This document shows positions 4,471-60,737 of a stretch of DNA of 64,000 nucleotides, piece after piece. Numbering within the stretch: the stretch's first letter is position 1; each line of letters begins with the position of its first letter. Under the pieces are notes generated by a model, which saw only the letters and a list, made by a program, of their open reading frames with translations, searched no databases and was not told where the DNA came from. The translations under genes and the position numbers were made by a program. This DNA comes from Segetibacter sp. (GTDB taxonomy: Bacteria; Bacteroidota; Bacteroidia; Chitinophagales; Chitinophagaceae): contig JAQBNO010000154.1 in assembly GCA_028288485.1 (NCBI GenBank), positions 124,001 to 188,000 on the forward strand, in the 5' to 3' direction.

Positions 4471-6258
4471 TTAAACAGCCTGCGTGGTCGCACCTGTCAT
4501 TTTTCTTTCACCGATCTGTTGACGCCACATGGCATAATACAAACCTTTTTCGGCCAGCAGTTCGTGGTGATTACCGATCTCGGCTACCCTGCCCTTTTCC
4601 AACACATAAATGCGGTCTGCATGCATGATGGTACTTAAACGGTGGGCAATCAAAACAGTAATCTGTTCTCTTTCAGACGAGATTTTTTTAATGGTACTGG
4701 TGATAGCCTCTTCGGTAATGCTGTCGAGCGATGAAGTAGCCTCATCAAATATAAGCAGGTGCGGATGACGCAACAATGAACGGGCAATAGAAAGACGTTG
4801 CTTTTCGCCGCCACTTAGTTTTAAACCACCTTCACCAATAACCGTTTCAAGCCCGTTATCGGCACGGCTTAAAATATACGTGCAACTTGCTTTTTCAAGT
4901 GCATCCCAAAGCTCTTCGTCTGCTGCCCCCGGCTTTACAAACACCAGGTTTTCTCTTATAGTTCCTGCAAACAACTGCGTATCCTGGGTCACGAAACCTA
5001 TTTGACCGCGCAGCTCGTCGAAATCAATTTCGTCGCTGCTTATTCCATTATAATATATTGCGCCATCCTGCGGACGATATAGGCCAACAAGCAATTTTAC
5101 CAGGGTACTTTTACCTGCACCTGAGGGACCTACGAAAGCAATGGTTTCACCTTTTTTTACATCAAAACTTATTTCGTCGAGGGCTTTAAACTGTGCCGTA
5201 CGGTGTTTGAAGTTGATATTTCTGAATTCTAACTCATTGATGCCGCCTACTTTGCGTGGATGATCGGGTTTGGCTTCTACCGGCCGGTTTAACAAGTCGT
5301 GAAAGTTTTGAAGGCTGGCTTCAGCTTCGCGGTAGCTGATAATTATATTTCCCATTTCCTGCATGGGGCCGAAAATGAAGAAGCCATAAAATTGCAGGGC
5401 CAGGAATTGCCCCGGAGTTAATATGTCGCGGAAGATGAGGTACAATAATACGAAGCTGATGACCTGTTGTAAAAAGTTTACCAATGTTCCCTGGATAAAG
5501 TTAAGTGACCGGATGCTTTTTACTTTACGCAGCTCAAGTCCTAATATCTTGTATGTGTTATTGTTTAGCCGTTTTACTTCCTGGTCGGTGAGACCGAGGC
5601 TTTTCACCAATTCGATATTTCGTAAACTTTCGGTTGTGGTGCCCGCTAATACAGTTGTTTCTTTGACGATATTCTTTTGTATCACCTTAATTTTCCGGCT
5701 CAAAATACTGGTAACAACGGCGAGAATTATCATGCCTACAACGTAAGTTGGAACAATACTCCAATGTTTGCTGGCTGCATAAATAGATACAAAAACAACG
5801 CTTACGATTATCGCAAAAAATATATTAATAAAAAAGCCGATAAACCGCTCAGTATCGGCTCTTACTTTTGTAAGTATCGAAAGGGTTTCACCGCTTCTTT
5901 GGTCCTCGAAATCCTGGTAAGGAAGGCGCATGCTGTGACGAAGGCCGTCGGTAAATATTTTTGCGCCAAACTTTTGAATGATCACATTTACCACGTAATC
6001 CTGGAATGCTTTTGCAATACGGCTCACCATGGCCGTACCGACCAATAAACCTAAAAAGTAAAGAACGCCCATGATGTAGTCGTGTTCGGTACGCACTTTA
6101 CCTGCAGCGTCAACGTGTGGATGGGTGGCGAGCTGATCCATTACTTTACCAATGATCATTGGGCTGAATAGTGAAAATACCTGGTTGACTGCAGCAAGAA
6201 ACAGGGCAAGAACAATAAACCATTTGAATGGCTTGAGATATTGAAGTAAAAGTTTCAT
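4471..6258 (-). CDS. ABC transporter, fused permease/ATPase (MsbA/MDR exporter type)
   Basis: A 595-residue half-transporter. About six membrane helices fill residues 12-300, followed by an ATPase with Walker A GPSGAGKST (377-385), Q-loop VTQDTQLF, signature LSGGEKQR (481-488), Walker B LLIFDE (501-506) and the H-loop in AHRLS. It would act as an inner-membrane homodimer exporting lipid, peptide or drug. The substrate is not evident. It is transcribed alone, with a divergent neighbour at 6473. Confidence 0.9.
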   Translation of the reverse strand: MKLLLQYLKPFKWFIVLALFLAAVNQVFSLFSPMIIGKVMDQLATHPHVDAAGKVRTEHDYIMGVLYFLGLLVGTAMVSRIAKAFQDYVVNVIIQKFGAKIFTDGLRHSMRLPYQDFEDQRSGETLSILTKVRADTERFIGFFINIFFAIIVSVVFVSIYAASKHWSIVPTYVVGMIILAVVTSILSRKIKVIQKNIVKETTVLAGTTTESLRNIELVKSLGLTDQEVKRLNNNTYKILGLELRKVKSIRSLNFIQGTLVNFLQQVISFVLLYLIFRDILTPGQFLALQFYGFFIFGPMQEMGNIIISYREAEASLQNFHDLLNRPVEAKPDHPRKVGGINELEFRNINFKHRTAQFKALDEISFDVKKGETIAFVGPSGAGKSTLVKLLVGLYRPQDGAIYYNGISSDEIDFDELRGQIGFVTQDTQLFAGTIRENLVFVKPGAADEELWDALEKASCTYILSRADNGLETVIGEGGLKLSGGEKQRLSIARSLLRHPHLLIFDEATSSLDSITEEAITSTIKKISSEREQITVLIAHRLSTIMHADRIYVLEKGRVAEIGNHHELLAEKGLYYAMWRQQIGERKMTGATTQAV

Positions 6259-21981: not shown

Positions 21982-22037
21982 AGCTTATCGATATTTATTT
22001 TAAATTGTTTAAGAGCGTTACATATTGCACGCGTTTT

Positions 22038-22110
22038 AGTGAATGGTGAGTAGTGAGTTGAAATGGAGTTTCACGTCTGACCTTTCACGTTTCACTTTTG
22101 GCTTTTCACT
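22038..22110. mobile_element. Heptad-repeat hairpin element without gene (kduD-kduI spacer)
   Basis: The left side is built of 7-mers GTGAATG, GTGAGTA, GTGAGTT. The right side, read in reverse, is GTGAAAA, GCCAAAA, GTGAAAC, GTGAAAG, GTCAGAC, GTGAAAC. The two halves form an imperfect inverted repeat. The same unit forms the ends of the four-helix-bundle elements in the heme cluster. Confidence 0.55.
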
Positions 22111-50715: not shown

Positions 50716-51966
50716 ATGGTAGAAGAGAAACAGAACAACATTTCTAAATTCTTTATAGCGGGAATAAATTATAAAAAGACAGAAGCTTCGATAAGAGGAC
50801 AGTTTGCTATTAATAACGACCAATACGCAAATATTTTATCGGTCGCCCCTGCTTTGGGTCTTTCAGAATTCTTCATTCTTTCAACTTGCAATCGTACCGA
50901 AATTTACGGGTTTGCCGATGATGCGTCTCAATTAATCGATCTTCTTTGCACACAAACCACCGGAAGCAAAGAAACTTTCCTTCAGTTATGTTATATTAAA
51001 GAAGGTGTTGAAGCTGTTCAACATATTTTCGAAGTTGGAGCCGGTTTAGAGTCACAGATCTTAGGGGATTATGAAATCATAGGCCAATTGAAACTGGCTG
51101 TAAAATTTGCAAAGGAAGCAGGGTTTGTAAGTGGTTTTACAGAAAGGCTGGTAAATAATGTAATACAATCTACTAAAGTCATAAAAAACCAGACTGCTCT
51201 TAGTGGCGGAACTGTTTCGGTTTCGTTTGCAGCAGTTCAGTACCTTAAAAAGAATGTGAGTAAGATCTCCGGCAAGAATATCTTGTTGCTGGGTGTTGGA
51301 AAAATCGGCCGGAACACTTGCAAAAACCTCGTTGACTACCTGGATACTAAGAAAATTACCTTAATCAACCGTACAGAAGAAAAGGCGGTTGAACTGGCAA
51401 AAGAATTGGATTTGAATTCGGCACCAATGACGGAATTACCGGCTTATATTCAGTCTTCAGATATCATACTCGTAGCAACTAACAGCAGCGAGCCTACTAT
51501 TCTAAAATCGCAATTAGAAAACTTTGGAGATAAGATCATTATTGATTTATCTATTCCCTACAATGTTGAAAAGGAAGCGCAGGAACTGCCAAATGTAACT
51601 TTGATAAATGTTGATGAGCTTTCAAGATTGAAAGATGAAACCCTGCAAAAACGCGTTGCAGAGGTACCTAAAGCAAAAGCAATCATTGCGGAACATAAAG
51701 CAGAATTTTTAGAGTGGAGCGAGATGCGTAAAAATGTTCCTTTCATCAAAGCTGTGAAACAAAAGCTGCACGACATGCATAATTGCGAGCTGTATCTTTC
51801 TACTTATACTACCTATACAACCGATACAACTGCTGTTAACGCTATCAATGTTCAACTAATCCAAAAAGTTATTAAAAATATGGCTGTAAAGATGCGCCAG
51901 CAACACCAGCCAGGTTGCTCTTACATTGAGGCAATCAACGATTTTATAAAGACCCACAGTAACTAA
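50716..51966 (+). CDS. hemA: Glutamyl-tRNA reductase
   Basis: 416 residues. It reduces Glu-tRNA(Glu) to glutamate-1-semialdehyde with NADPH, the first step of the C5 heme path. Catalytic C58 is in LSTCNRTEIYG, the GLESQILGDYEIIGQ block is present, and GVGKIG (193-198) is the NADPH-binding motif. The C-terminal dimerisation helix is intact. First gene of the cluster; hemC starts 1 nt after its stop. Confidence 0.95.
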   Translation: MVEEKQNNISKFFIAGINYKKTEASIRGQFAINNDQYANILSVAPALGLSEFFILSTCNRTEIYGFADDASQLIDLLCTQTTGSKETFLQLCYIKEGVEAVQHIFEVGAGLESQILGDYEIIGQLKLAVKFAKEAGFVSGFTERLVNNVIQSTKVIKNQTALSGGTVSVSFAAVQYLKKNVSKISGKNILLLGVGKIGRNTCKNLVDYLDTKKITLINRTEEKAVELAKELDLNSAPMTELPAYIQSSDIILVATNSSEPTILKSQLENFGDKIIIDLSIPYNVEKEAQELPNVTLINVDELSRLKDETLQKRVAEVPKAKAIIAEHKAEFLEWSEMRKNVPFIKAVKQKLHDMHNCELYLSTYTTYTTDTTAVNAINVQLIQKVIKNMAVKMRQQHQPGCSYIEAINDFIKTHSN

Positions 51967-51967
51967 G

Positions 51968-52954
51968 ATGCGCAGTAAGGTTTTAAGAATTGGAACCCGG
52001 GAAAGCCAACTTGCAGTATGGCAGGCAAACCGGGTTAAAGAGCTATTGGCTCAACAAGGATATGAATCTGAGTTAGTTTATATAAAAAGCGAAGGCGACA
52101 TCGACCTTCAAACTCCACTATACGAAATCGGCGTGCAGGGAATTTTTACCCGTAGCCTTGATATCGCCCTTTTAAACAACCGCATCGATCTTGCTGTTCA
52201 TAGCATGAAAGATGTACCTACCCAATTACCAAAAGGCATCGTACAAGCTTCAGTTTTAAAAAGAGCATCGTATAAAGATTTGCTGGTGTATAAAGGTGAC
52301 CGGGAGGAATTGGAGAAGGCGCTGGGCTTGGTGAACGGGCAATGGGCAATGGGCAATAAGGAGAACCCGCAATTCACCATTCACCATTCTCCATTCACGA
52401 TTGCCACCAGCAGCATTCGCCGCAAAGCGCAATGGCTCAACCGCTACCCTGATCATGCTGTCGAAAACTTAAGAGGCAATGTAAACACACGCTTACGAAA
52501 AATTGCAGAAAGCGATTGGAACGGGGCAATATTTGCCGCTGCAGGATTGGAGAGAATTAATTTGCGTCCTGAAACTTCAATTGAACTGGATTGGATGTTA
52601 CCAGCACCTGCTCAGGGAGCTATTGTAGTTGTATGCCGCGATGAAGACAGTTTTTCCTTTGAAGCCTGTCAATATTTTAACGACCACAACACCGCCTTAT
52701 GCACTAAGATCGAAAAGGATTTTTTGAGAACATTGATGGGTGGATGCTCTACCCCAATAAGTGCTTTAGCTGAGATTGCAAATGAAACATTAATTTTCAA
52801 AGGAAATCTTTTTACTGTCGACGGAAGCGAAAGAATAGACATAGAAAAGACAGTCGACGTCGGCGAAGCTTCACAACTGGGAGAAGTTGCAGCTCTTGAA
52901 CTTTTAGAAAAGGGAGGCAGGGCAATTGCCGACAGTATTCATCATGAAAGATAG
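51968..52954 (+). CDS. hemC: Porphobilinogen deaminase with in-frame hairpin insertion
   Basis: 328 residues against ~305 usual. It polymerises four porphobilinogens to hydroxymethylbilane. SMKDVP (D82, catalytic), ATSSIRRKAQW, LRGNVNTRL and C260 (LMGGCSTPIS, dipyrromethane attachment) are present. Residues 122-144 (VNGQWAMGNKENPQF and following) match nothing in the family and are encoded by an inverted heptad repeat (52331-52398). The insert falls in the surface loop before ATSSIRR, and the frame is kept, so activity is probably retained. hemD overlaps its end by 11 nt. Confidence 0.95.
   Translation: MRSKVLRIGTRESQLAVWQANRVKELLAQQGYESELVYIKSEGDIDLQTPLYEIGVQGIFTRSLDIALLNNRIDLAVHSMKDVPTQLPKGIVQASVLKRASYKDLLVYKGDREELEKALGLVNGQWAMGNKENPQFTIHHSPFTIATSSIRRKAQWLNRYPDHAVENLRGNVNTRLRKIAESDWNGAIFAAAGLERINLRPETSIELDWMLPAPAQGAIVVVCRDEDSFSFEACQYFNDHNTALCTKIEKDFLRTLMGGCSTPISALAEIANETLIFKGNLFTVDGSERIDIEKTVDVGEASQLGEVAALELLEKGGRAIADSIHHER
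52331..52398. mobile_element. Heptad-repeat hairpin inserted in frame in hemC
   Basis: The left arm GTGAACGGGCAAT plus two more GGGCAAT units pairs with a right arm that reads in reverse GTGAATGGAGAAT plus two GGTGAAT units: 20 of 27 positions match around a 14-nt loop. The 7-bp unit is of the same kind as the ends of the four-helix-bundle elements further down the cluster. No gene is inside. Confidence 0.75.
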
Positions 52955-53663
52955 AAATCTGCGTATATTAAGTACACGTCCTTTAGATGAAGCATTGGTT
53001 GAAAAAGCCTCTTTTAAGCATATTACAATAACCACACTTCCATTTATCGAAATAAAAAAGCTGGTTACAAACGAGGTTTCGCGGCAAATAGAAATGTTAT
53101 CAAAACTGCCTGCTACTGTTGTTTTTACCAGTATGAATGCAGTTGAAGTTGTGGTCGATTTACTTCCCGCCAACGCTGTCATGCCCGGCTGGAAACTCTA
53201 TTGCATAGGTGGCGCAACTTTCACATTAGTCAAGAAGTACTGGGCTTATGACAGCATTGCATTTACTGCAAAAAATGCCACCGACCTTGCTAAAAAGATT
53301 ACAGCAGATAAAATAACCAACATTCATTTTTTCTGCGGCAATAAAAGACGGGAAGAACTTCCTGAAATATTAAGGGCAGAAAATATAATGGTGAACGAAC
53401 TGGTTGTGTACGAAACTATTGATACGCCGGTAAAAATTGAAGAGGATTATAACGCTATTTTATTTTTTAGTCCAAGTGCCGTCAACAGTTTTTTTACCAG
53501 CAATCAGGTTTCTCCCGATACTATTTTGTTTGCAATCGGCAATACTACCGCAAATGCCATTAAACAATTTAGCAGCAATAGCATTGTTGTTAGTGAGTTT
53601 CCTGCCAGGGACCAGCTGGTAGATAAAGCAATAGAATATTTTGATAGGGAGCGGCTAAGGTGA
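52944..53663 (+). CDS. hemD: Uroporphyrinogen-III synthase
   Basis: I chose ATG 52944 (MKDRNLRILSTRPLDEALVE) over an upstream TTG; it overlaps the hemC end by 11 nt. 239 residues with the HemD pattern: STRPLDE, VVFTSMNAVE, KLYCIGGATF, FFCGNKRREELPE, ELVVYETI and ILFFSPSAVNSFF. It closes hydroxymethylbilane to uroporphyrinogen III. Its stop codon lies at a GTGAAAC-GTGAAAA sequence like the arms of the hairpin elements. Confidence 0.9.
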   Translation: MKDRNLRILSTRPLDEALVEKASFKHITITTLPFIEIKKLVTNEVSRQIEMLSKLPATVVFTSMNAVEVVVDLLPANAVMPGWKLYCIGGATFTLVKKYWAYDSIAFTAKNATDLAKKITADKITNIHFFCGNKRREELPEILRAENIMVNELVVYETIDTPVKIEEDYNAILFFSPSAVNSFFTSNQVSPDTILFAIGNTTANAIKQFSSNSIVVSEFPARDQLVDKAIEYFDRERLR

Positions 53664-53706
53664 AACGTGAAAAATTGGAGGTGCGATTGCTACTTTCATT
53701 TTGATG

Positions 53707-53763
53707 ATTGTGTAACAAGCAGAGGTAATGCTATTTTACATCGTTGTGTCACTCACTTGTACT
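53707..53763 (+). repeat. Dispersed 60-nt intergenic repeat, TGTGTCACT subtype, copy 15
   Basis: The 5' half is diverged; it ends CATCGTTGTGTCACTCACTT and GTACT, identical to copy 1 over 25 bp. It lies between hemD and hemE. Confidence 0.75.
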
Positions 53764-53837
53764 GAACAGCTATATGGAACAAAAAAGAACATCAGTTAAA
53801 TAACAAACTTAAAGGATTACGATAATAACCAATCTAA

Positions 53838-54869
53838 ATGAACGAGCTTAAAAACGACCTGGTATTAAGAGCACTAAAAGGCGAAAAAACAGAACGCGTA
53901 CCCGTTTGGATGATGCGACAGGCAGGTCGTTACTTACCGGATTATCTGAAACTTAAAGCCAAATACGATTTTTTTACCCGCGTTCAAACACCGGAACTTG
54001 CAACTGAAATAACCCTTCAACCAATTGACCAGGTTGGAGTAGATGCTGCCATTATATTTTCCGATATCCTGGTCATCCCGCAGGCAATGGGTGTAGAAGT
54101 GCTGATGGAAGAAGGAAAAGGCCCTTCCTTACCAAATGTTATAAAGAGTCAGCAAGATATAGATGCATTAATTACCGATGGTGCTGAAGAAAGTTTGAAG
54201 TATGTAACCGATGCCCTGTCACTAACAAAAAAAGAATTAAATGGCCGAGTGCCGCTTATTGGTTTTGCCGGCGCTCCGTGGACCATCTTATGCTACATGG
54301 TCGAAGGCAAAGGCAGCAAAACATGGGATAAAGCAAAGCAATTTGCTTACACAGAACCACAACTTGCACGGCAATTGTTACAGAAGATCACCAACATAAC
54401 TATAAATTATTTAAAGGCGCAGGTGAAAGCAGGTGCAGACCTTGTACAGGTATTTGATAGCTGGGCGGGCGCATTAAGTCCTGCTGATTTTAAAACATTT
54501 GCACAACCTTATCTTGTTCAAATTGCAGATGCTTTACAGCACGACGCTCCTGTAATTCTGTTCCCCAAAGGAACATGGTATGCTTTAAAAGACCTAAGCC
54601 AAACAAGCGCAGCAGGACTTGGAGTGGACTGGTGCGTTGAACCTAAGGTGGCAAGAGAGCTGACAAATAACAGCATCACCTTGCAAGGTAATTTTGACCC
54701 GTCAAAACTCCTTGCGCCAATTCCTGAAATCAAAAAAGCAGTAAAGGAAATGATTGATGGTTTTGGAACACAAAGATACATAGCAAACCTGGGACATGGA
54801 ATTATGCCAAACGTTCCGGTTGATCATGCAAAAGCGTTTGTGGAGGCGGTGAAGGAATATGGGTTGTGA
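53838..54869 (+). CDS. hemE: Uroporphyrinogen decarboxylase
   Basis: 343 residues. [15 protein letters not shown] (22-36) is the signature, IFSDILVIP holds the catalytic Asp, and [16 protein letters not shown] and [11 protein letters not shown] complete the active site. It decarboxylates uroporphyrinogen III to coproporphyrinogen III. The stop (54867-54869) lies inside the left arm of the first four-helix-bundle element, so insertion occurred at the very end of the gene. Confidence 0.95.
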
Positions 54870-55322
54870 GTGGTGAATGGTGAGTAGCGAGTATTAAGAC
54901 TTGTAGTCATTAAAAAACCAAAATATGTATTTGCAATTAGCCCATACTAAACTCGATGCTTGTCCACAAACAAGGAAGTTTACGCTTGAATGTTATAAAA
55001 TAACAAAACTGCTTCAGCTGATGAGAAGTTTGCAATGTTTCAGCAATTAAGAAGAACGGCGTTGTCTGCACTCTAAGTTTAGCAGAAGGAGCACCCGGAA
55101 AATCGGCAAATGAAAGGAAAAGATATTTTGAAATTGCCCGGGGATCTGTGATTGAAGTTGATGCAGCAATAGATATTGCGTTTGACCTCAGTTATGTAAC
55201 AATCGAAAATTTAGAGAATTTAGGAAAGGCCTGGTTAACACTTTTGAGTTATTAACAGGATTAATGACTCAAGGAGATAATACTCGCCACTGACAACTCA
55301 CTACTGAAAACTCACAACTCGC
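54863..55322 (+). mobile_element. Four-helix-bundle element 1 (inverted heptad ends, dead gene)
   Basis: Left end 54863-54896: GTGAGTG, GTGAATG, GTGAGTA, GCGAGTA in tandem. Right end 55278-55322, read in reverse: GCGAGTT, GTGAGTT, TTCAGTA, GTGAGTT, GTCAGTG, GCGAGTA. Both ends reach GCGAGTATTA on the inside. It carries one decayed gene and exactly fills the hemE-hemF spacer. Confidence 0.65.
54925..55255 (+). pseudogene. Four-helix-bundle (S23/IVS-type) protein, frameshifted
   Basis: MYLQLAHTKLDACPQTRKFT and LECYKITKL open the family's first helix. Shifted frames continue as DEKFAMFQQLRRTALS, then LAEGAPGKSANERKRYFEIA and GSVIEVDAAIDIAFDLSY. It matches the intact copy at 57806 over most of its length but has at least two frameshifts and an internal stop. 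Confidence 0.75.
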
Positions 55323-55326
55323 AAGA

Positions 55327-56295
55327 ATGACCATAAAAGAACAATGGATCGACTTTATACATCAACTGCAAAATGATATATGCAAAGCGCTTGAAGCAAG
55401 TGATGGCAAAGCAAAGTTTGTGGAAGATGCATGGGAACGGCCGGAAGGTGGCGGAGGGAAAACACGGGTAATTGCAAATGGCGACGTTTTTGAAAAAGGT
55501 GGAGTAAACACTTCAGTTGTTTACGGCGATGTAACAGATGCCATGCGAACTCAACTAAAGATCAATGGAGCGAAATGGTTCGCTTGTGGATTGTCTTTAG
55601 TTATTCATCCATACAATCCTTTTGTTCCAACGGTTCATGCCAATTACCGGATGTTCGAATTGTACAATGAGAATGATGAAATAATAGACAGGTGGTTTGG
55701 TGGCGGCACTGACCTTACTCCTTATTATTTATTTGAAGAGGATGCGAAACATTTTCATCAAACGTATAAAGATAGCTGTGACCAGTTTGATAATTTCTTT
55801 TACCGCAGGTTCAAAGCTGAATGTGATGATTACTTCGTTAACTGGCACCGTAACAAAGAACGTCGTGGTATAGGCGGGATCTTTTATGACTACCAAAAAC
55901 CAACAGAAAGCAGGGATGTAAACTTCTGGATGAATTTTGCAAAAACCTGTGGCTATGCATTCATCGATGCATATATCCCTATTGTAAATAAGCGAAAGCA
56001 AACTCCATTCACGCAAGAAAATAAACATTGGCAGGAAATCAGGCGTGGCCGATATGTTGAATTTAATCTTGTTCATGACAGGGGAACAATCTTTGGCTTA
56101 AAAACAAACGGCAGAATCGAAAGTATTCTTATGAGCCTGCCTCCTACTGTTCGTTTCGAATACAATTACCAGCCACAGCCGGGAAGTGAGGAAGACAAGT
56201 TATTGCAGGCTTGCCTGCATCCACGAGACTGGTTATCCCAGCAACCGTCAGAAGAAGAAAAAGCAGATTGGGCAAGACGTTCCAACACCTGTTAG
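55327..56295 (+). CDS. hemF: Coproporphyrinogen III oxidase, oxygen-dependent
   Basis: 322 residues. It turns coproporphyrinogen III to protoporphyrinogen IX using O2. WERPEGGGGKTRV, HPYNPFVPTVHANYR, WFGGGTDLTPYY, ERRGIGGIFYD and RRGRYVEFNLVHDRGT are family motifs. The ATG is 4 nt after the right arm of element 1. No oxygen-independent HemN is in the window, so this route fits aerobic growth. Confidence 0.95.
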   Translation: MTIKEQWIDFIHQLQNDICKALEASDGKAKFVEDAWERPEGGGGKTRVIANGDVFEKGGVNTSVVYGDVTDAMRTQLKINGAKWFACGLSLVIHPYNPFVPTVHANYRMFELYNENDEIIDRWFGGGTDLTPYYLFEEDAKHFHQTYKDSCDQFDNFFYRRFKAECDDYFVNWHRNKERRGIGGIFYDYQKPTESRDVNFWMNFAKTCGYAFIDAYIPIVNKRKQTPFTQENKHWQEIRRGRYVEFNLVHDRGTIFGLKTNGRIESILMSLPPTVRFEYNYQPQPGSEEDKLLQACLHPRDWLSQQPSEEEKADWARRSNTC

Positions 56296-56302
56296 GGATT
56301 GC

Positions 56303-56748
56303 TCATTTGGAGATTTAGGTATTTTGAGATTTGTTACAAAAGCCAAAACTTTACAATCATAAATAAGTTTGAATTACAAAAACGGCAAAACAATTTCATG
56401 TAGATGTAATAAAAATTTGCAGTCAGTTTCCTAAAAATGCAGCCGGGTTTGAAACAGCAAAACAATTGATAAGATCTGCAGGTTCAGCCGGAGCAAACTA
56501 CAGGGCAGGTTGTAGAGGAAAATCCAAGGAGATTTTTATTTACAAAATAGAAGTTGTTTTAGAAGATGCGGATGAAACTTTATATTGTCTGGAAGTTTCT
56601 AAAAAAGCAAACCTGTTACTTGAAAGCGAAGAGCCTGAAAACTTAATTAAAGAATCGAACGAACTTGTGAGAATCTCCAATGCAGCAGATATTACTGCAA
56701 AGAAAAACAGGGATACAGAAAATCCCAATATCACTAAATCTCAAAATC
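56303..56748 (+). mobile_element. Four-helix-bundle element 2 (inverted 8-bp ends, frameshifted gene)
   Basis: The left end (about 56303-56336) is ATTTGGAG, ATTTAGGT, ATTTTGAG, ATTTGTTA. The right end (56719-56748) in reverse is ATTTTGAG, ATTTAGTG, ATATTGGG, ATTTTCTG. Units are 8 bp, not 7, and unrelated in sequence to element 1, but the layout is the same. The right arm lies inside the gene's last codons. Confidence 0.65.
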
Positions 56749-56756
56749 AGAAATAA
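56361..56756 (+). pseudogene. Four-helix-bundle (S23/IVS-type) protein, 5' frameshift
   Basis: NKFELQKR (from 56361) is one frame and QFHVDVIKICSQFPKNAAGF, continuing into QLIRSAGSAGANYRAGC, the next, so a single base seems lost near 56384. The remaining frame runs to 56756 and includes GKSKEIFIYKIEVVLEDADE. It belongs to a different subfamily from the 57806 copy. No good start codon remains; a TTG at 56466 would give a truncated 96-residue product. Confidence 0.65.
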
Positions 56757-56759
56757 CTG

Positions 56760-57737
56760 ATGTATTTACAACGACGAAACAGAATATTAAGAGCAACTCC
56801 TTCTATACGAAGTCTTGTTGCAGAAACTACACTTACACCCAACGATTTCATCGTTCCTTTATTTATTGACGAAGGAGAAAATATAGAGACTGAAATAGCT
56901 TCGATGCCGAATTATTTCCGTAGAAGTATCGACCTTACCGTTAAGGAAGTAAAAGAACTTTGGAGCCTTGGAATAAAAAGCGTTTTGCTTTTTATCAAAT
57001 GTAAAGATGAACTCAAAGACAATACCGGCAAAGAAGCATGGAACAGAGATGGTTTGATGCAAAGAAGTATCAGGGCAATCAAAGATGCAGTTCCTGGAAT
57101 GTACGTAATGACTGATGTGGCCCTTGACCCATATTCATCTTATGGCCATGATGGAATTGTTGAAAACGGAGAAATTGTAAATGATCCGACAGTTGAAGCA
57201 TTGGTAAAAATGAGCGTCAGCCATGCAGACGCTGGTGTAGATATGGTTGCTCCCAGCGATATGATGGATGGCCGTATAGGTGCCATAAGAGAAGGATTAG
57301 AAGAAAATGGCTTTACTAAAGTTGGTATCATGGCGTATAGTGCTAAATATGCCTCCTGTTTTTACGGACCTTTTCGTGATGCGCTAGATAGTGCTCCTGG
57401 CTTTGGAGATAAAAAGACCTACCAGATGGATTATTCGAACCGCACTGAAGCAATCAGGGAAACATTAATGGACATCGAAGAAGGAGCTGATATTGTAATG
57501 GTAAAACCGGGCTTACCCTATCTGGATATTGTTCGTGAAGTTAAAAATGCTGTTGATGTTCCGGTAAGTGTTTATAACATCAGCGGGGAATATGCGATGA
57601 TTAAAGCCGCTGCAAAAATGGGTTGGATAAACGAAGAAAAAGCCATCATTGAAACATTAACAGCTTTCAAAAGAGCAGGAGCGGATTTAATTGCAACATA
57701 CTTTGCGAAGGATGCGGCGAAGCTGTTGAATGTGTGA
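56760..57737 (+). CDS. hemB: Delta-aminolevulinic acid dehydratase (porphobilinogen synthase)
   Basis: 325 residues. Schiff-base lysines K196 (MAYSAKYAS) and K249 (VMVKPGLPYLD) are present. The metal loop DVALDPYSSYGHDG has Ala/Asp/Asp where zinc enzymes have three Cys, so it is the Mg-type enzyme. It condenses two ALA to porphobilinogen. ATG 3 nt after the preceding pseudogene's stop. Its own stop (57735-57737) lies inside the left arm of element 3. Confidence 0.95.
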   Translation: MYLQRRNRILRATPSIRSLVAETTLTPNDFIVPLFIDEGENIETEIASMPNYFRRSIDLTVKEVKELWSLGIKSVLLFIKCKDELKDNTGKEAWNRDGLMQRSIRAIKDAVPGMYVMTDVALDPYSSYGHDGIVENGEIVNDPTVEALVKMSVSHADAGVDMVAPSDMMDGRIGAIREGLEENGFTKVGIMAYSAKYASCFYGPFRDALDSAPGFGDKKTYQMDYSNRTEAIRETLMDIEEGADIVMVKPGLPYLDIVREVKNAVDVPVSVYNISGEYAMIKAAAKMGWINEEKAIIETLTAFKRAGADLIATYFAKDAAKLLNV

Positions 57738-58194
57738 ATGGTGAAAAAGAAAAACCGTCATCTCTGTTTCATACACTTTGATTAATTTGTACGAAGCTAC
57801 TATTTATGTTCTTTACCCTTAATCACCAAAAGCTCGAGGCTTACAAACATTCAAGAAACTTTATTCTTGAATGTTACAAATTGACAAAAGAGTTACCATC
57901 GGATGAGAGGTTCGGAATGATATCTCTGATAAGAAGAGCAGCATTATACACCCATGGTAATATTGCAGAAGGGGCTTCGCGAAAAACAGAAGTTGAAAGA
58001 AAAAGATATTATGAAATTTCAAGAGGCTCGATTATAGAAATTGATGCAGCCCTAAATATTGCATCAGATTTAGAATATTTGCAAAATATAAACATTGAAT
58101 TACCGGGCAAGAATATGGTATCATGTTTCAGGATGCCGACAGTAATGATTGAATCTCATCCGCACCCTTGACCATACACCATTGCTCATTCAGC
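57727..58194 (+). mobile_element. Four-helix-bundle element 3 (inverted ends, intact gene)
   Basis: Left end TTGAATGTGTGAATGGTG (57727-57744). The right end (58169-58194) in reverse is GCTGAATGAGCAATGGTG followed by TATGGTCA. These are related to the GTGAATG-type units of element 1 and the hemC hairpin. The arms are more diverged than in elements 1 and 2. It fills the hemB-hemL spacer. Confidence 0.55.
57806..58171 (+). CDS. Four-helix-bundle protein (S23/23S rRNA IVS-protein family)
   Basis: 121 residues, near family length, mostly helical: HQKLEAYKHSRNFILECYKL, GMISLIRRAALYTHGNIAEG, ERKRYYEISRGSIIEIDAAL, then LPGKNMVSCFRM. Family members are encoded in intervening sequences of 23S rRNA in Leptospira and Coxiella and as stand-alone genes in Bacteroidota; their role is unproven. 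The last residues (ESHPHP) abut the right inverted arm and may come from it. This is the only intact one of three copies in the cluster. Confidence 0.8.
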   Translation: MFFTLNHQKLEAYKHSRNFILECYKLTKELPSDERFGMISLIRRAALYTHGNIAEGASRKTEVERKRYYEISRGSIIEIDAALNIASDLEYLQNINIELPGKNMVSCFRMPTVMIESHPHP

Positions 58195-58201
58195 AAAAGC
58201 C

Positions 58202-59488
58202 ATGATAGAAAAAAGCATACAATTATTTCAAAGAGCACAGCAGTCAATTCCGGGCGGTGTAAACTCACCCGTCAGAGCCTTCAAAAGTGTTGGTGGAACA
58301 CCAATTTTTATAAAGAATGCAAAAGGACCTTATTTATACGATGCGGATGGTAACCGCTATATCGATTATATCGCGTCATGGGGGCCGATGATTCTGGGCC
58401 ATGCTTATGACCCTGTAGTTAAAGCTATACAGGAACGTGCTGTTTACTCCACTTCCTACGGCGCACCTACAGAACTCGAAATTGAAATGGCTGAACTAAT
58501 CCTTAGCATGGTTCCTAACGTTGATTTAATACGAATGGTCAGCAGCGGAACCGAAGCCTGTATGAGCGCTTTACGCTTGGCGCGTGGATATACGGGACGA
58601 AATAAAGTTATAAAGTTCGAAGGTCATTACCACGGGCATGCAGATAGCTTTTTAGTAAAAGCAGGAAGTGGCTTGGCAACCTTCGGCATACAGCAAGTGC
58701 CAGGAATAACTGTTGGCGTTGCTGCAGATACATTAGTTGCAGCCTATAATAATCTTGATCAGGTAAAGCAACTCGTTGCTGAAAACAAAGGTGAAGTGGC
58801 TTGTATCATTCTTGAGCCAGTAGCCGGTAACATGGGTTGTATTTTACCTCGACCAGGATTTTTAGAAGGCATTCGTCGATTGTGTGATGAAGAAGGAATT
58901 GTTTTCATTCTGGATGAGGTGATGACGGGTTTTAGATTAGCGCCCGGGGGAGCACAGGAAAAACTGGGTATAAAAGCAGACCTGGTTACTTATGGAAAAG
59001 TAATTGGCGGCGGTATGCCAGTTGGCGCATTTGGTGGAAAGAAAGAAATTATGCAGCACATTTCACCTTTAGGAAATGTGTACCAGGCGGGAACATTAAG
59101 TGGAAATCCTATTGCGATGATTGCAGGTTACACTACTTTAAAAACACTGAAAGACAATCCAACTATTTATACTGAACTGGATGAAAAAACAGTTTACCTG
59201 AAAAATGGATTAAACGAAGTTTTAGCCTCATGGGGACAACCTTATGTTATTAACCAGTTCGGTTCAATGATCAGTATCCATTTCAGTAGTCACCCGGTTA
59301 CCGACTTTGCCACAGCCGCTTCAGCTAATAACAAAATGTTTAACCAGTTTTTCCACGCGATGTTGAACAAGGGAATATATCTTCCGCCTTCTGCATTTGA
59401 GAGTTGGTTCTTAAATAATGCGCTTAGCTACGAAGATTTGGATGAAACGATTAAAGCTGCTAAGGAAAGCCTGGAAGAGGTGAAGTAA
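58202..59488 (+). CDS. hemL: Glutamate-1-semialdehyde 2,1-aminomutase
   Basis: 428 residues, PLP fold type I. K266 ([15 protein letters not shown]) binds [27 protein letters not shown] and [10 protein letters not shown] are family motifs. It converts glutamate-1-semialdehyde to ALA, linking HemA to HemB. Last gene of the cluster. ATG 7 nt after element 3's right arm; a strong terminator follows at 59635. Confidence 0.95.
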
Positions 59489-59613
59489 ATTGAAATAAAA
59501 ATTGCTGAAGCGAAAGCCGGTACTATCAAATGGATATTTATATGTTGGACAGGTTCTATCCTTACAACTTTCGGGCGATGTTTGCATTTCTCAAACTCTT
59601 TCCGGATAAATAA
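59489..59613 (+). pseudogene. Remnant of small coiled-coil/TM (DUF1640-like) protein
   Basis: IEIKIAEAKAGTIKWIFICW then, after one frameshift, MFAFLKLFPDK and stop. This matches the C-terminal end (coil plus membrane helix) seen in DUF1640/CCDC90-type proteins. Only the tail is left. No start. Confidence 0.4.
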
Positions 59614-59634
59614 TAACGCTACAGCTAATTGGTG

Positions 59635-59667
59635 AAACGGAGGCAAAAGAATTATTTGCCTCCGTTT
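59635..59667 (+). terminator. Terminator of the heme cluster
   Basis: Perfect 13-bp stem AAACGGAGGCAAA / TTTGCCTCCGTTT with 7-nt loop and T-rich tail. Confidence 0.85.
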
Positions 59668-59748
59668 TTATTAATCGTGGTAAAGTAGTATTTGAAATTC
59701 TTAGCCGGCAACTAAAATGCAAACGTCAACCAGAATTACAACGGTTGC

Positions 59749-59803
59749 AGTGTGCGACGCAACAGTAGCTTAATTCTTATTCAAAAGCTAAGTTCAAAAA
59801 GAA
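59749..59803 (-). repeat. Dispersed 60-nt intergenic repeat, TGCGTCGCA subtype, copy 16
   Basis: AGTGTGCGACGCAACAGTAG then a diverged AT-rich half ending in CAAAAAG. It lies between convergent hemL and the AraC gene. Confidence 0.65.
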
Positions 59804-59807
59804 AAAA

Positions 59808-60737
59808 CTACCGGGGCATCAACAAGTCACATGGCTTTAGACCGGTGTGTTTTTTAAATGCAGTAGAAAAGTGAGATATGGAAGAGTAACCGAGTAAGGC
59901 AGAAACGTCTGTTACACTTAAACTTTTTTCATACAACAGGTATTTCGCGTGCTCCATGCGTTGCTGTTGGTAGAAGTCGAAAATAGTAGTTCCAAAAATT
60001 TCTTTGAAACCCTTTTTTAAATAACATTCATTTATAGCCACTTTTCGGCTTAGCTCTTTAATAGTAATAGGGTCACCGATATGTTGCAGCAATACTTCGC
60101 GGGCATGTAATATTTTTTCCCTGTCGAGGTCATTTGCCAGGAATTTGCAGGAAAAGCCTTCTTCTTTCTCATCAACAAGACATTCGAGGCTGTATAAAAG
60201 TATCTCGTGAATTTTCGCATTCACAAAAATATTTTCAAGGCTGCCACTATAACTATGGTTTAAAAAAGAGTCTAAAGCGGTTCTTTTTCGCGCACAAACA
60301 GGAAATATTTTGGTAAACGAAGATGGATGTTTAAATGCGAGAACTTCATCTTTGCGGTTGCTTAATTTTACATTATGCGTAAACTGGCTAAGAAACGTAT
60401 GTGTAAAATGGAAAGTAAATACATCAACAGTTTGAATCTTTCCCTTACAGTTGGCTGTAGGCAACTCGCTGCATTTGGCACAATTTCTTTCTTCGCAATA
60501 ACGGTTACCAGTACTGCAATAGCGCAGTTCCAGGTAATTTTTTTCGGGCTGGTTGGTATGAAAATGATAAACCATCATGCCTGTATCTTCCGACGCCATC
60601 AGGTTATGACTATAGTAACGCCTGATAGAATACTGCAATGAGCCCGGAATGTTTTGCTCCTTCTCATAAAGTAAATCCATCGAAGCATCTACGGTAGTTT
60701 GGTTTGCAACTTTTAATATATCGAGAGGTTTCAACAT
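59808..60737 (-). CDS. AraC-family regulator with cysteine-rich N-terminal domain
   Basis: The start at 60737 (MLKPLDILKV) is preferred to 60773; 309 residues. The C-terminal ~100 residues are an AraC double HTH (ITIKELSRKVAINECYLKKG; SVTDVSALLGYSSISHFSTA; FKKHTGLKP). The N-terminal domain holds RYCSTGNRYCEERNCAKCSE and NCKG, six Cys in ~30 residues, which could bind a metal, cluster or redox signal. Its target is unknown; the nearest genes are the heme cluster and the divergent gltB. Confidence 0.85.
   Translation of the reverse strand: MLKPLDILKVANQTTVDASMDLLYEKEQNIPGSLQYSIRRYYSHNLMASEDTGMMVYHFHTNQPEKNYLELRYCSTGNRYCEERNCAKCSELPTANCKGKIQTVDVFTFHFTHTFLSQFTHNVKLSNRKDEVLAFKHPSSFTKIFPVCARKRTALDSFLNHSYSGSLENIFVNAKIHEILLYSLECLVDEKEEGFSCKFLANDLDREKILHAREVLLQHIGDPITIKELSRKVAINECYLKKGFKEIFGTTIFDFYQQQRMEHAKYLLYEKSLSVTDVSALLGYSSISHFSTAFKKHTGLKPCDLLMPR

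What the first reader, a model, noticed from the sequence alone, without database searches (positions are those of the whole stretch)
54863..58194. Heme cluster invaded by inverted-heptad elements carrying four-helix-bundle genes
Three spacers (hemE-hemF, hemF-hemB, hemB-hemL) are each filled by a unit with the same plan: an array of degenerate 7- or 8-bp repeats, a four-helix-bundle (S23/IVS-type) gene, then the same array inverted. Unit sequences differ between elements (GTGAGTN, ATTTNGAG, GTGAATG-like), so the arms are not copies of one terminal repeat; each pair matches itself. Left arms overlap the hemE and hemB stop codons and right arms end 3-11 nt before the next start. The 23S rRNA IVSs of Leptospira and Coxiella have the same plan (ORF inside a stem of complementary repeats). 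I infer a class of IVS-like mobile elements adapted to protein-coding spacers, perhaps inserted or amplified as hairpins, with the bundle protein as a helper. Two of three genes are dead, so insertion is old or the protein acts in trans.
Basis: partly seen in the sequence, partly recalled or inferred. Interest (0 to 1): 0.85.

Follow-up and report, generated by a model that had tools for sequence, protein, structure and literature searches.

The report
Four-helix genes inside inverted heptad arrays
A very common bacterial gene family of unknown function usually sits inside a hairpin built from short 7- or 8-letter repeats that match only each other, and in one genome similar repeats also form many gene-less hairpins, which points to an unrecognised two-part genetic element spread across bacteria.

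Summary
In the window, hemE-hemF and hemF-hemB each carry a PF05635 (S23/IVS-type) pseudogene between inverted 7- or 8-bp arrays. The hemB-hemL copy has an open frame but arms too decayed to stand alone; relatives keep clear arms there. Of 171 S23 loci from many phyla, 121 have self-complementary arms (period 7 in 97, 8 in 21). None of 2,940 random intervals had periodic inverted arms. Arms match within an element better than between orthologous elements (p<=5e-5), so they change in concert. Period-7 5' arms share the consensus A-G-W-W-N-W-N. Elements fill spacers between mostly co-oriented genes. Some hem sites lack S23, and orthologous spacers can hold hairpins of different unit families. 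In one solo-rich genome, 50 gene-less hairpins in 800 kb resemble that genome's own S23 arms more than foreign ones. S23 genes look locus-bound and under purifying selection; some genomes rich in them lack an RVT_1 reverse transcriptase. Best reading: an IVS-like system in which S23 is the family-specific partner of dispersed heptad hairpins, working like RAYT with REPINs but without a transposase. Mobility by S23 is inferred, not shown.

The parts
54860..54913 (+). element 1, left (5') arm: degenerate GTGAGTN heptads, overlapping the hemE stop codon at 54867-54869
   Evidence: inverted pair I1; sequence
54986..55228 (+). element 1, S23/PF05635 pseudogene (2 TGA, 1 TAA)
   Evidence: G000:C90:178986-179228, 37.2 bits
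55261..55322 (+). element 1, right arm, inverted copy of the heptads, ending 4 nt before the hemF start
   Evidence: I1 and I3; TRF 55289-55319; last units read by eye
56298..56332 (+). element 2, left arm: 8-bp units ATTTNGAG
   Evidence: I2
56370..56681 (+). element 2, S23/PF05635 pseudogene (1 TGA)
   Evidence: G000:C90:180370-180681, 56.6 bits
56720..56754 (+). element 2, right arm, ending 5 nt before the hemB start
   Evidence: I2 and I25
57732..57744 (+). element 3, decayed left arm GTGTGAATGGTGA over the hemB stop codon (57735-57737)
   Evidence: weak alone
57806..58171 (+). element 3, S23/PF05635 gene, open frame of 121 aa; the profile match ends at position 90 of 106
   Evidence: 79.3 bits; TIGR02436, 69.4 bits; 79.7 bits
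58177..58192 (+). element 3, decayed right arm CACCATTGCTCATTCA, 9 nt before the hemL start
   Evidence: (I23)
53838..54869 (+). hemE, host gene
   Evidence: ORF; PF01208 URO-D
55327..56295 (+). hemF, host gene
   Evidence: ORF; PF01218
56760..57737 (+). hemB, host gene
   Evidence: ORF; PF00490; query
58202..59488 (+). hemL, host gene (class-III aminotransferase; the name hemL rests on context)
   Evidence: ORF; PF00202
52327..52405 (+). gene-less inverted heptad hairpin lying in frame inside hemC
   Evidence: the stretch is shorter in G005 and G013 and longer in G009

Best explanation
The hem spacers hold members of a widespread two-part element: an S23 four-helix gene inside a palindrome of tandem 7- or 8-bp units whose arms pair with each other and keep a private unit sequence. 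Shown: the anatomy, its generality across phyla, concerted change of the two arms, fit into spacers of mostly co-oriented genes, presence/absence and unit-family switching at orthologous sites, selection on the protein, and in one genome dispersed gene-less hairpins that resemble the arms of that genome's own S23s more than foreign ones. Inferred: the S23 protein is the family-specific partner of these hairpins and helps them persist and spread in trans, as a RAYT is thought to do for REPINs. The arms make an RNA stem that RNase III can cut, as in rRNA IVSs, so the operon mRNA tolerates the insert. The arms are homogenised by slipped pairing and template switching within the hairpin. In the hem cluster the S23 copies are old and mostly dead, and in unit 3 the arms have decayed as well.
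For: Arms around S23: 60 of 93 loci at score >=17; 54 of 78 named loci above the cross-locus 95% level, 21 of 22 of those outside Bacteroidota; 121 of 171 pooled; 16 of 16 in G064/G018/G067; 10 of 13 plasmid loci. Period: identity at lag 7 of .586 against .24-.35 at lags that are not multiples of 7. Motif AGWWNWN in period-7 arms, information 2.38 bits against a null maximum of 1.76. Controls. Orientation: 110 of 116 upstream and 93 of 107 downstream genes co-oriented; arm starts a median 2 nt after the upstream stop and ends 8 nt before the next start. Within-ortholog self-matching p<=5e-5. S23-free, filled and switched sites. AU test p=1.5e-4 against vertical descent at hemF-hemB, arm period following S23 subtype in 8 of 8. 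Own S23 arms against own solos in G013: mean best 19.7 (n=9), other genomes of the family 13.0 (n=42), p=.0045. dN/dS 0.08-0.11 in six of the seven pairs where dS could be estimated.
Against: 50 of 171 S23 loci do not reach the arm threshold; in the window's genome 6 of 12 do. The S23-solo match is shown in one genome: in G002 1 of 8 S23s and in G151 1 of 6 had a matching solo, and the pooled three-genome test was not significant (p=.078). For G013's 50 solos the best-matching S23 is its own in 17, another genome of the family in 19 and a distant one in 14; among the 30 with score >=16, 14, 9 and 7, so unit families are shared. In one search self-pairing was the best of its row and column in only 10 of 30 elements, and in the MoxR-DUF58 set cross-pairing exceeded self-pairing (16.2 against 14.0). 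Direct matching of left to right flank was also raised (27 of 93). S23 has no catalytic site known to me, and no movement, binding or RNA cutting was observed.
Confidence: 0.5

Rival explanations
1. Post-transcriptional regulator: S23 is an RNA-binding ring protein whose heptad hairpins in operon spacers are its binding sites. The element around its own gene is autoregulation and the solos are a regulon; any spread of hairpins is by other means.
For: Strong co-orientation and tight fit between operon genes, purifying selection on S23, locus-bound genes, a phased AG motif with a median 4.9 units per arm, two solved relatives each deposited with five chains.
Against: Unit families switch at orthologous spacers, a number of S23 copies have stops, hairpins or S23 are absent at many orthologous sites, and three of the 13 plasmid copies lie between genes on the opposite strand.
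Confidence: 0.25
2. Passenger model: heptad hairpins are made and kept by DNA replication slippage and template switching or by another mobility system, and S23 genes merely live in the loops of large ones.
For: Solo hairpins (50 in 800 kb) outnumber S23 elements (6 listed there) in G013; unpaired arrays without S23 occur too; S23 genes are often broken in the window's genome.
Against: S23 loci carry inverted arms far above random ORFs, in many phyla and in genomes with few solos; S23 is under purifying selection.
Confidence: 0.17
3. Retro-mobile element: S23 works like Avd with a reverse transcriptase in trans, copying the hairpin through RNA.
For: S23 is related to Avd (NF033474 matches below its cut-off; passage of PMC10053308); one RVT_1 gene in the window's genome.
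Against: 7 of 20 S23-bearing genomes have no RVT_1 match, among them G158, G148 and G156 with 16, 13 and 15 S23 rows. Only RVT_1 was searched.
Confidence: 0.05
4. Ordinary terminal inverted repeats of a transposon, or REPINs moved by a Y1 transposase.
For: Hairpin anatomy; 18 of 20 genomes have a Y1_Tnp match.
Against: Arms differ between elements and are tandem arrays; S23 is not a transposase family; G003 and G151 have no Y1_Tnp match and G151 no RVT_1 either, yet G151 has 9 S23 rows.
Confidence: 0.03

Closest known systems
23S rRNA intervening sequences (IVS) with S23/IVP ORF (Coxiella, Leptospira)
   Same: S23-family ORF in the loop of an inverted-repeat stem; in Coxiella the stem is 28 bp and tandem GACAGAT heptamers begin at the RNase III site on its 5' side (passages of PMC4990558). 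Read in another phase GACAGAT is AGATGAC, the unit of one solo family in G013.
   Different: Here the elements lie in protein-coding spacers, not rRNA; many have no ORF; RNA cutting is untested.
REPIN-RAYT systems (Bertels and Rainey 2011, PMC3116915, passages)
   Same: Inverted doublets forming hairpins in extragenic DNA; repeat families tied to a single-copy helper gene that has the same repeat next to it.
   Different: The helper is a four-helix bundle protein, not a tyrosine transposase; arms are tandem 7-8 bp arrays; the S23 gene lies inside the hairpin; no excision products seen.
GGGAATC heptamer repeats of Xanthomonas (PMC4692102, one section and passages)
   Same: 186 and 183 heptamer arrays in two genomes, 70 and 75 cases as inverted pairs in close proximity, mostly intergenic; 2GSC, a solved S23 relative, is XCC0516 (that this is a Xanthomonas gene is recalled).
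   Different: Treated there as G-quadruplex repeats; no link to S23 ('S23' and 'four-helix' 0 times).
TAACTGA heptamers of Beggiatoaceae (PMC4679880, passages) and cyanobacterial STRRs (recalled)
   Same: Intergenic heptamer arrays near starts, reported in Cyanobacteria and Bacteroidetes too.
   Different: Described as direct repeats; 'S23' and 'four-helix' 0 times in the main text.
Avd of diversity-generating retroelements
   Same: Related fold by report and profile matches below cut-off.
   Different: No RT beside the S23 genes was seen in the hem region; template and variable repeats were not searched.

Membership tests
23S rRNA IVS | ORF of the S23/IVP family (PF05635) | tested here: met
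23S rRNA IVS | ORF bounded by inverted repeats forming a stem | tested here: met
   the third window unit is weak
23S rRNA IVS | located in a helix of rRNA | tested here: not met
   Rfam at gathering score: none in window 51000-60000; one tRNA and no rRNA in 20 of the 80 named loci
23S rRNA IVS | cut out by RNase III without ligation | not testable with these tools
   needs RNA
REPIN-RAYT | REP-associated Y1 tyrosine transposase as partner | tested here: not met
   the gene inside is PF05635; 2 of 20 S23-bearing genomes have no PF01797 match
REPIN-RAYT | dispersed inverted doublets of the same family as those at the helper gene | tested here: inconclusive
   yes in G013, weak in G002 and G151
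REPIN-RAYT | helper gene single-copy by type | tested here: met
   closest within-genome pair 69.3% among fetched loci, not all S23s of each genome
Diversity-generating retroelement (Avd) | reverse transcriptase partner | tested here: not met
   7 of 20 genomes without RVT_1
IS or MITE with terminal inverted repeats | one conserved terminal repeat shared by copies | tested here: not met
   units differ between elements; units are shared only within families
IS or MITE with terminal inverted repeats | target site duplication | not tested
   empty sites are too diverged to read one

The most novel reading that the evidence does not exclude
S23 proteins are ring-shaped readers of a repeat code: a pentamer binds about five AG-phased heptads of one single-stranded arm (as TRAP binds its phased triplets, an analogy recalled), each S23 lineage reading its own unit sequence. 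The pair of protein and private heptad family forms a bacterium-wide class of minimal mobile hairpins, of which rRNA IVSs, cyanobacterial STRRs, Xanthomonas GGGAATC pairs and Beggiatoa TAACTGA arrays are all instances.
Probability: 0.3. Interest if true: 0.95.

Novelty: new variant of a known kind. Interest (0 to 1): 0.87.

Why it matters
PF05635/TIGR02436 is a very common bacterial family without a known function: it had a match in 45 of 61 genomes drawn across the phylum. Tying it to a self-matching inverted heptad array gives it a substrate that can be tested at the bench directly, may explain where several known, unlinked heptamer repeats come from, and shows the rRNA IVS as one case of a far wider element that lives in operon spacers.

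Tried and rejected
Vertical descent of the hemF-hemB S23 with its host was rejected (AU p=1.5e-4). A recent invasion of the hem cluster by S23 copies is not supported. RVT_1 and Y1 transposases as obligatory partners were rejected. One arm sequence shared by all elements was rejected. Phages as carriers: no match to the S23 query in the phage collection. Rfam gave nothing at gathering score in the hem region. The three-genome pooled test of S23 arms against solos was not significant (p=.078). A target-site duplication could not be read.
Full report
WHAT IS THERE. The three spacers hemE-hemF, hemF-hemB and hemB-hemL hold S23/IVS-type (PF05635) genes with inverted short-unit arrays; the host genes agree with Pfam. 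Units 1 and 2 are clear: 54-nt arms at 74% complementarity with GTGAGTN heptads, and 35-nt arms at 80% with 8-bp ATTTNGAG units; predicted RNA folds are better than shuffles (z -3.65 and -2.27). Unit 3 is decayed: its arms alone do not beat chance and its fold z is -1.52. The S23 frames of units 1 and 2 have stops; that of unit 3 is open.

HOW GENERAL. The window's genome has 12 PF05635 genes in 13 rows, two rows being pieces of one gene. Matches occur in 10 of 10 genomes of the genus, 51 of 60 across the order and 45 of 61 across the phylum; only the best-scoring loci of those searches were examined. For 93 loci with enough flank (4 of 97 dropped), the left flank matched the reverse complement of its own right flank better than 95% of pairings with other loci in 64 (own 6 of 12, genus 21 of 27, order 15 of 27, phylum 22 of 27); the direct-repeat version gave 27. 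In arms scoring >=17 (60 of 93) the identity at lags 7, 14 and 21 was .586.555 and .534, and .24-.35 at the other lags up to 24, highest at 8 and 16. The other groups, sorted by eye from record titles, are Alpha-, Beta- and Lambdaproteobacteria, Desulfobacterota, Ignavibacteria, Omnitrophica, Verrucomicrobia, Acidobacteria, Firmicutes, Planctomycetes, Nitrospirae and SAR324. Pooled: 121 of 171 with score >=17; best period 7 in 97, 8 in 21, and 5, 6 and 9 once each. On plasmids, 24 records had a match; 13 of them were fetched, 12 cyanobacterial and one Gemmatirosa, and 10 of 13 beat the 95% level. Two of these lie between cas6 and cas4 and one between cas10 and cmr3, which fits the S23 genes noted in cas loci in PMC3936711 (passages).

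CONTROLS. In three genomes, 0 of 2,940 random intervals and 1 of 623 random ORFs of S23 size had periodic inverted arms (27 and 8 reached the score without being periodic); 23 of 28 S23 loci there reached the score.

WHAT THE ARRAYS SHARE. Aligned by rotation, the 5' arm heptads (194 arrays, 97 elements) read A .73, G .89, then W-W-N-W-N; the G is also the most conserved position within arrays (.90). Information is 2.38 bits against a maximum of 1.76 in 60 column-permuted sets; period-8 arms give 2.48 against 1.94 with a related but looser pattern. C is rare in the 5' arm (9.9%, G 29%), and G exceeds C in 109 of 121. The median arm is 4.9 units and the median element 490 nt. Two solved relatives, 2gsc and 2rld, are each deposited with five chains.

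CONCERTED CHANGE. In six sets of S23 elements at orthologous loci (30 elements) self-pairing averaged 18.4 and cross-pairing 14.3; permuting partners within sets gave p<=5e-5. Self-pairing was the best of its row and column in 10 of 30, and in the MoxR-DUF58 set the mean went the other way (14.0 against 16.2). At hemB-hemL the unit differs between hosts in step in both arms: GTGAATG/GTCAATG in G002, GTGAATC/GTCAATC in G012, GTCAAAC/GTGAAAC in G035.

POSITION. S23 is co-oriented with the upstream gene in 110 of 116 and with the downstream gene in 93 of 107 of the 121 loci where one was found; the element begins a median 2 nt after the upstream stop and ends 8 nt before the next start (starts are first start codons of long ORFs and so approximate). 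In the hem cluster all 19 S23s, in 13 of 48 genomes, are co-oriented. Three of the 13 plasmid copies are not.

EMPTY, FILLED AND SWITCHED SITES. Spacers of 41-59 nt in G005 and 36-130 nt in G009 lack S23, while G001, G002, G003 and the window's genome have different subsets filled. Some S23-free spacers still hold hairpins: by eye, the 82-86-nt hemB-hemL spacers of G001, G003 and G004 carry an inverted CAAAGAC-type repeat. G047 has a 232-nt hemB-hemL spacer with good heptad arms and, by eye, an S23 remnant between them; tblastn gave no S23 hit there. In the genus of G013 four solo sites were compared with those relatives in which both flanks were found (read by eye). At one the same spacer holds GTTGATT octads in G013 and G195, GTTCAC octads in G190 and GTGAGAC heptads in G188 and G185; at two others some relatives (G187, G192, G194, G195) have no hairpin or another family. 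At hemF-hemB the S23s of G000, G001 and G003 are not a clade (AU p=1.5e-4), although their hemB are (100/97), and arm period goes with S23 subtype: 8 in G000-G002, 7 in G003, G043, G046, G052 and G064 (arm scores of G001, G003 and G043 are low).

SOLO HAIRPINS. In 800 kb of G013, tandem arrays of period 7 and 8 numbered 92 and 41, against 0-8 per 400 kb at lags 5, 6 and 9-13. Fifty inverted pairs away from S23 were kept, 46 with loops under 100 nt. G013's own S23 arms match these solos better (mean best 19.7, n=9) than S23 arms of other genomes of the family (13.0, n=42, p=.0045) or further off (11.2, n=95, p=.0004). Own S23s are 9 of 146 in the pool and the best match for 17 of 50 solos; other genomes of the family are best for 19 and distant ones for 14. 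G002 and G151 have few solos (8 and 2) and mostly no match; pooling the three genomes gave p=.078. So the link rests on one genome.

S23 GENES ARE LOCUS-BOUND AND SELECTED. The nearest S23 in another genome shares a flanking gene family in 35 of 44 cases at >=60% identity, 13 of 28 at 50-60% and 2 of 12 below, against 214 of 3,848 random pairs; the closest within-genome pair was 69.3% (only loci fetched, not every S23 of each genome). In the S23 tree 16 of 17 hem copies form two hem-only clades (2 of 19 hem copies were too short for it). dN/dS was 0.08-0.11 in six pairs and 0.24 in a seventh; one of the six and the seventh include a copy with a stop, and six further pairs were saturated at synonymous sites. 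RVT_1 is missing in 7 of 20 S23-bearing genomes and Y1_Tnp in 2.

HOW IT MOST LIKELY WORKS. The arms form a stem in RNA or single-stranded DNA. In the Coxiella rRNA IVS the stem is 28 bp, is cut by RNase III in vitro, and tandem GACAGAT heptamers begin at the 5' cut (passages of PMC4990558). By inference the operon-spacer elements survive for the same reason: the insert can be cut out of the message. The link between S23 arms and solos in G013, with locus-bound S23 genes, resembles REPINs and RAYTs (passages of PMC3116915). I infer that S23 recognises its own phased unit and helps its hairpins spread or persist. Arm homogenisation by slipped self-pairing is inference.

WHAT IS KNOWN. Nine paper searches listed no paper that I could see tying PF05635/S23 genes to heptamer arrays outside rRNA; only open-licence papers are held, I saw the listings and passages of the papers named here, and supplements were not open. 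Heptamer arrays were described without S23 in Xanthomonas and Nostoc (PMC4692102) and Beggiatoaceae (PMC4679880). S23 in rRNA insertions of CPR bacteria is noted in PMC11270868 (passages). Passages of PMC5524665, PMC8700078, PMC10910872 and PMC10053308 name the family without such arrays. Cyanobacterial STRRs and TRAP are recalled from memory.

VERDICT. The IVS comparison holds in plan but not in site, so I file it as a variant, not as an rRNA IVS. The mobile-element reading is likely for the hairpins, unlikely for the S23 copies in the hem cluster as recent invaders.

Noticed in passing
window 52327-52405: An inverted heptad hairpin (GGGCAAT and ATTCACC units) lies in frame inside hemC; the stretch is shorter in G005 and G013 and longer, with other residues, in G009.
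   Followed up: partly
window 22037-22110: Another small hairpin of GTGAGTA / TTTCACG-type heptads.
   Followed up: no
G013:C1 about 3772000-3772140 (query 6003-6140): A separate dispersed repeat of about 138 nt with some 15 further listed copies in G013 and weaker matches in congeners; it matches some copies on both strands, so it may be palindromic too.
   Followed up: no
L235 (Muribaculaceae MAG): S23 element whose arms are 9-bp units AGTTGTTGA.
   Followed up: no
L372, L375, L378 (cyanobacterial plasmids): S23 elements sit between cas6-cas4 and cas10-cmr3, so '23S IVP' genes reported in CRISPR loci may be spacer elements and not CRISPR parts.
   Followed up: partly
L068 hemF-hemB and L062 hemB-hemL spacers: These spacers are filled by longer tandem repeats (units of roughly 14-21 nt by eye) of unknown nature.
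   Followed up: no
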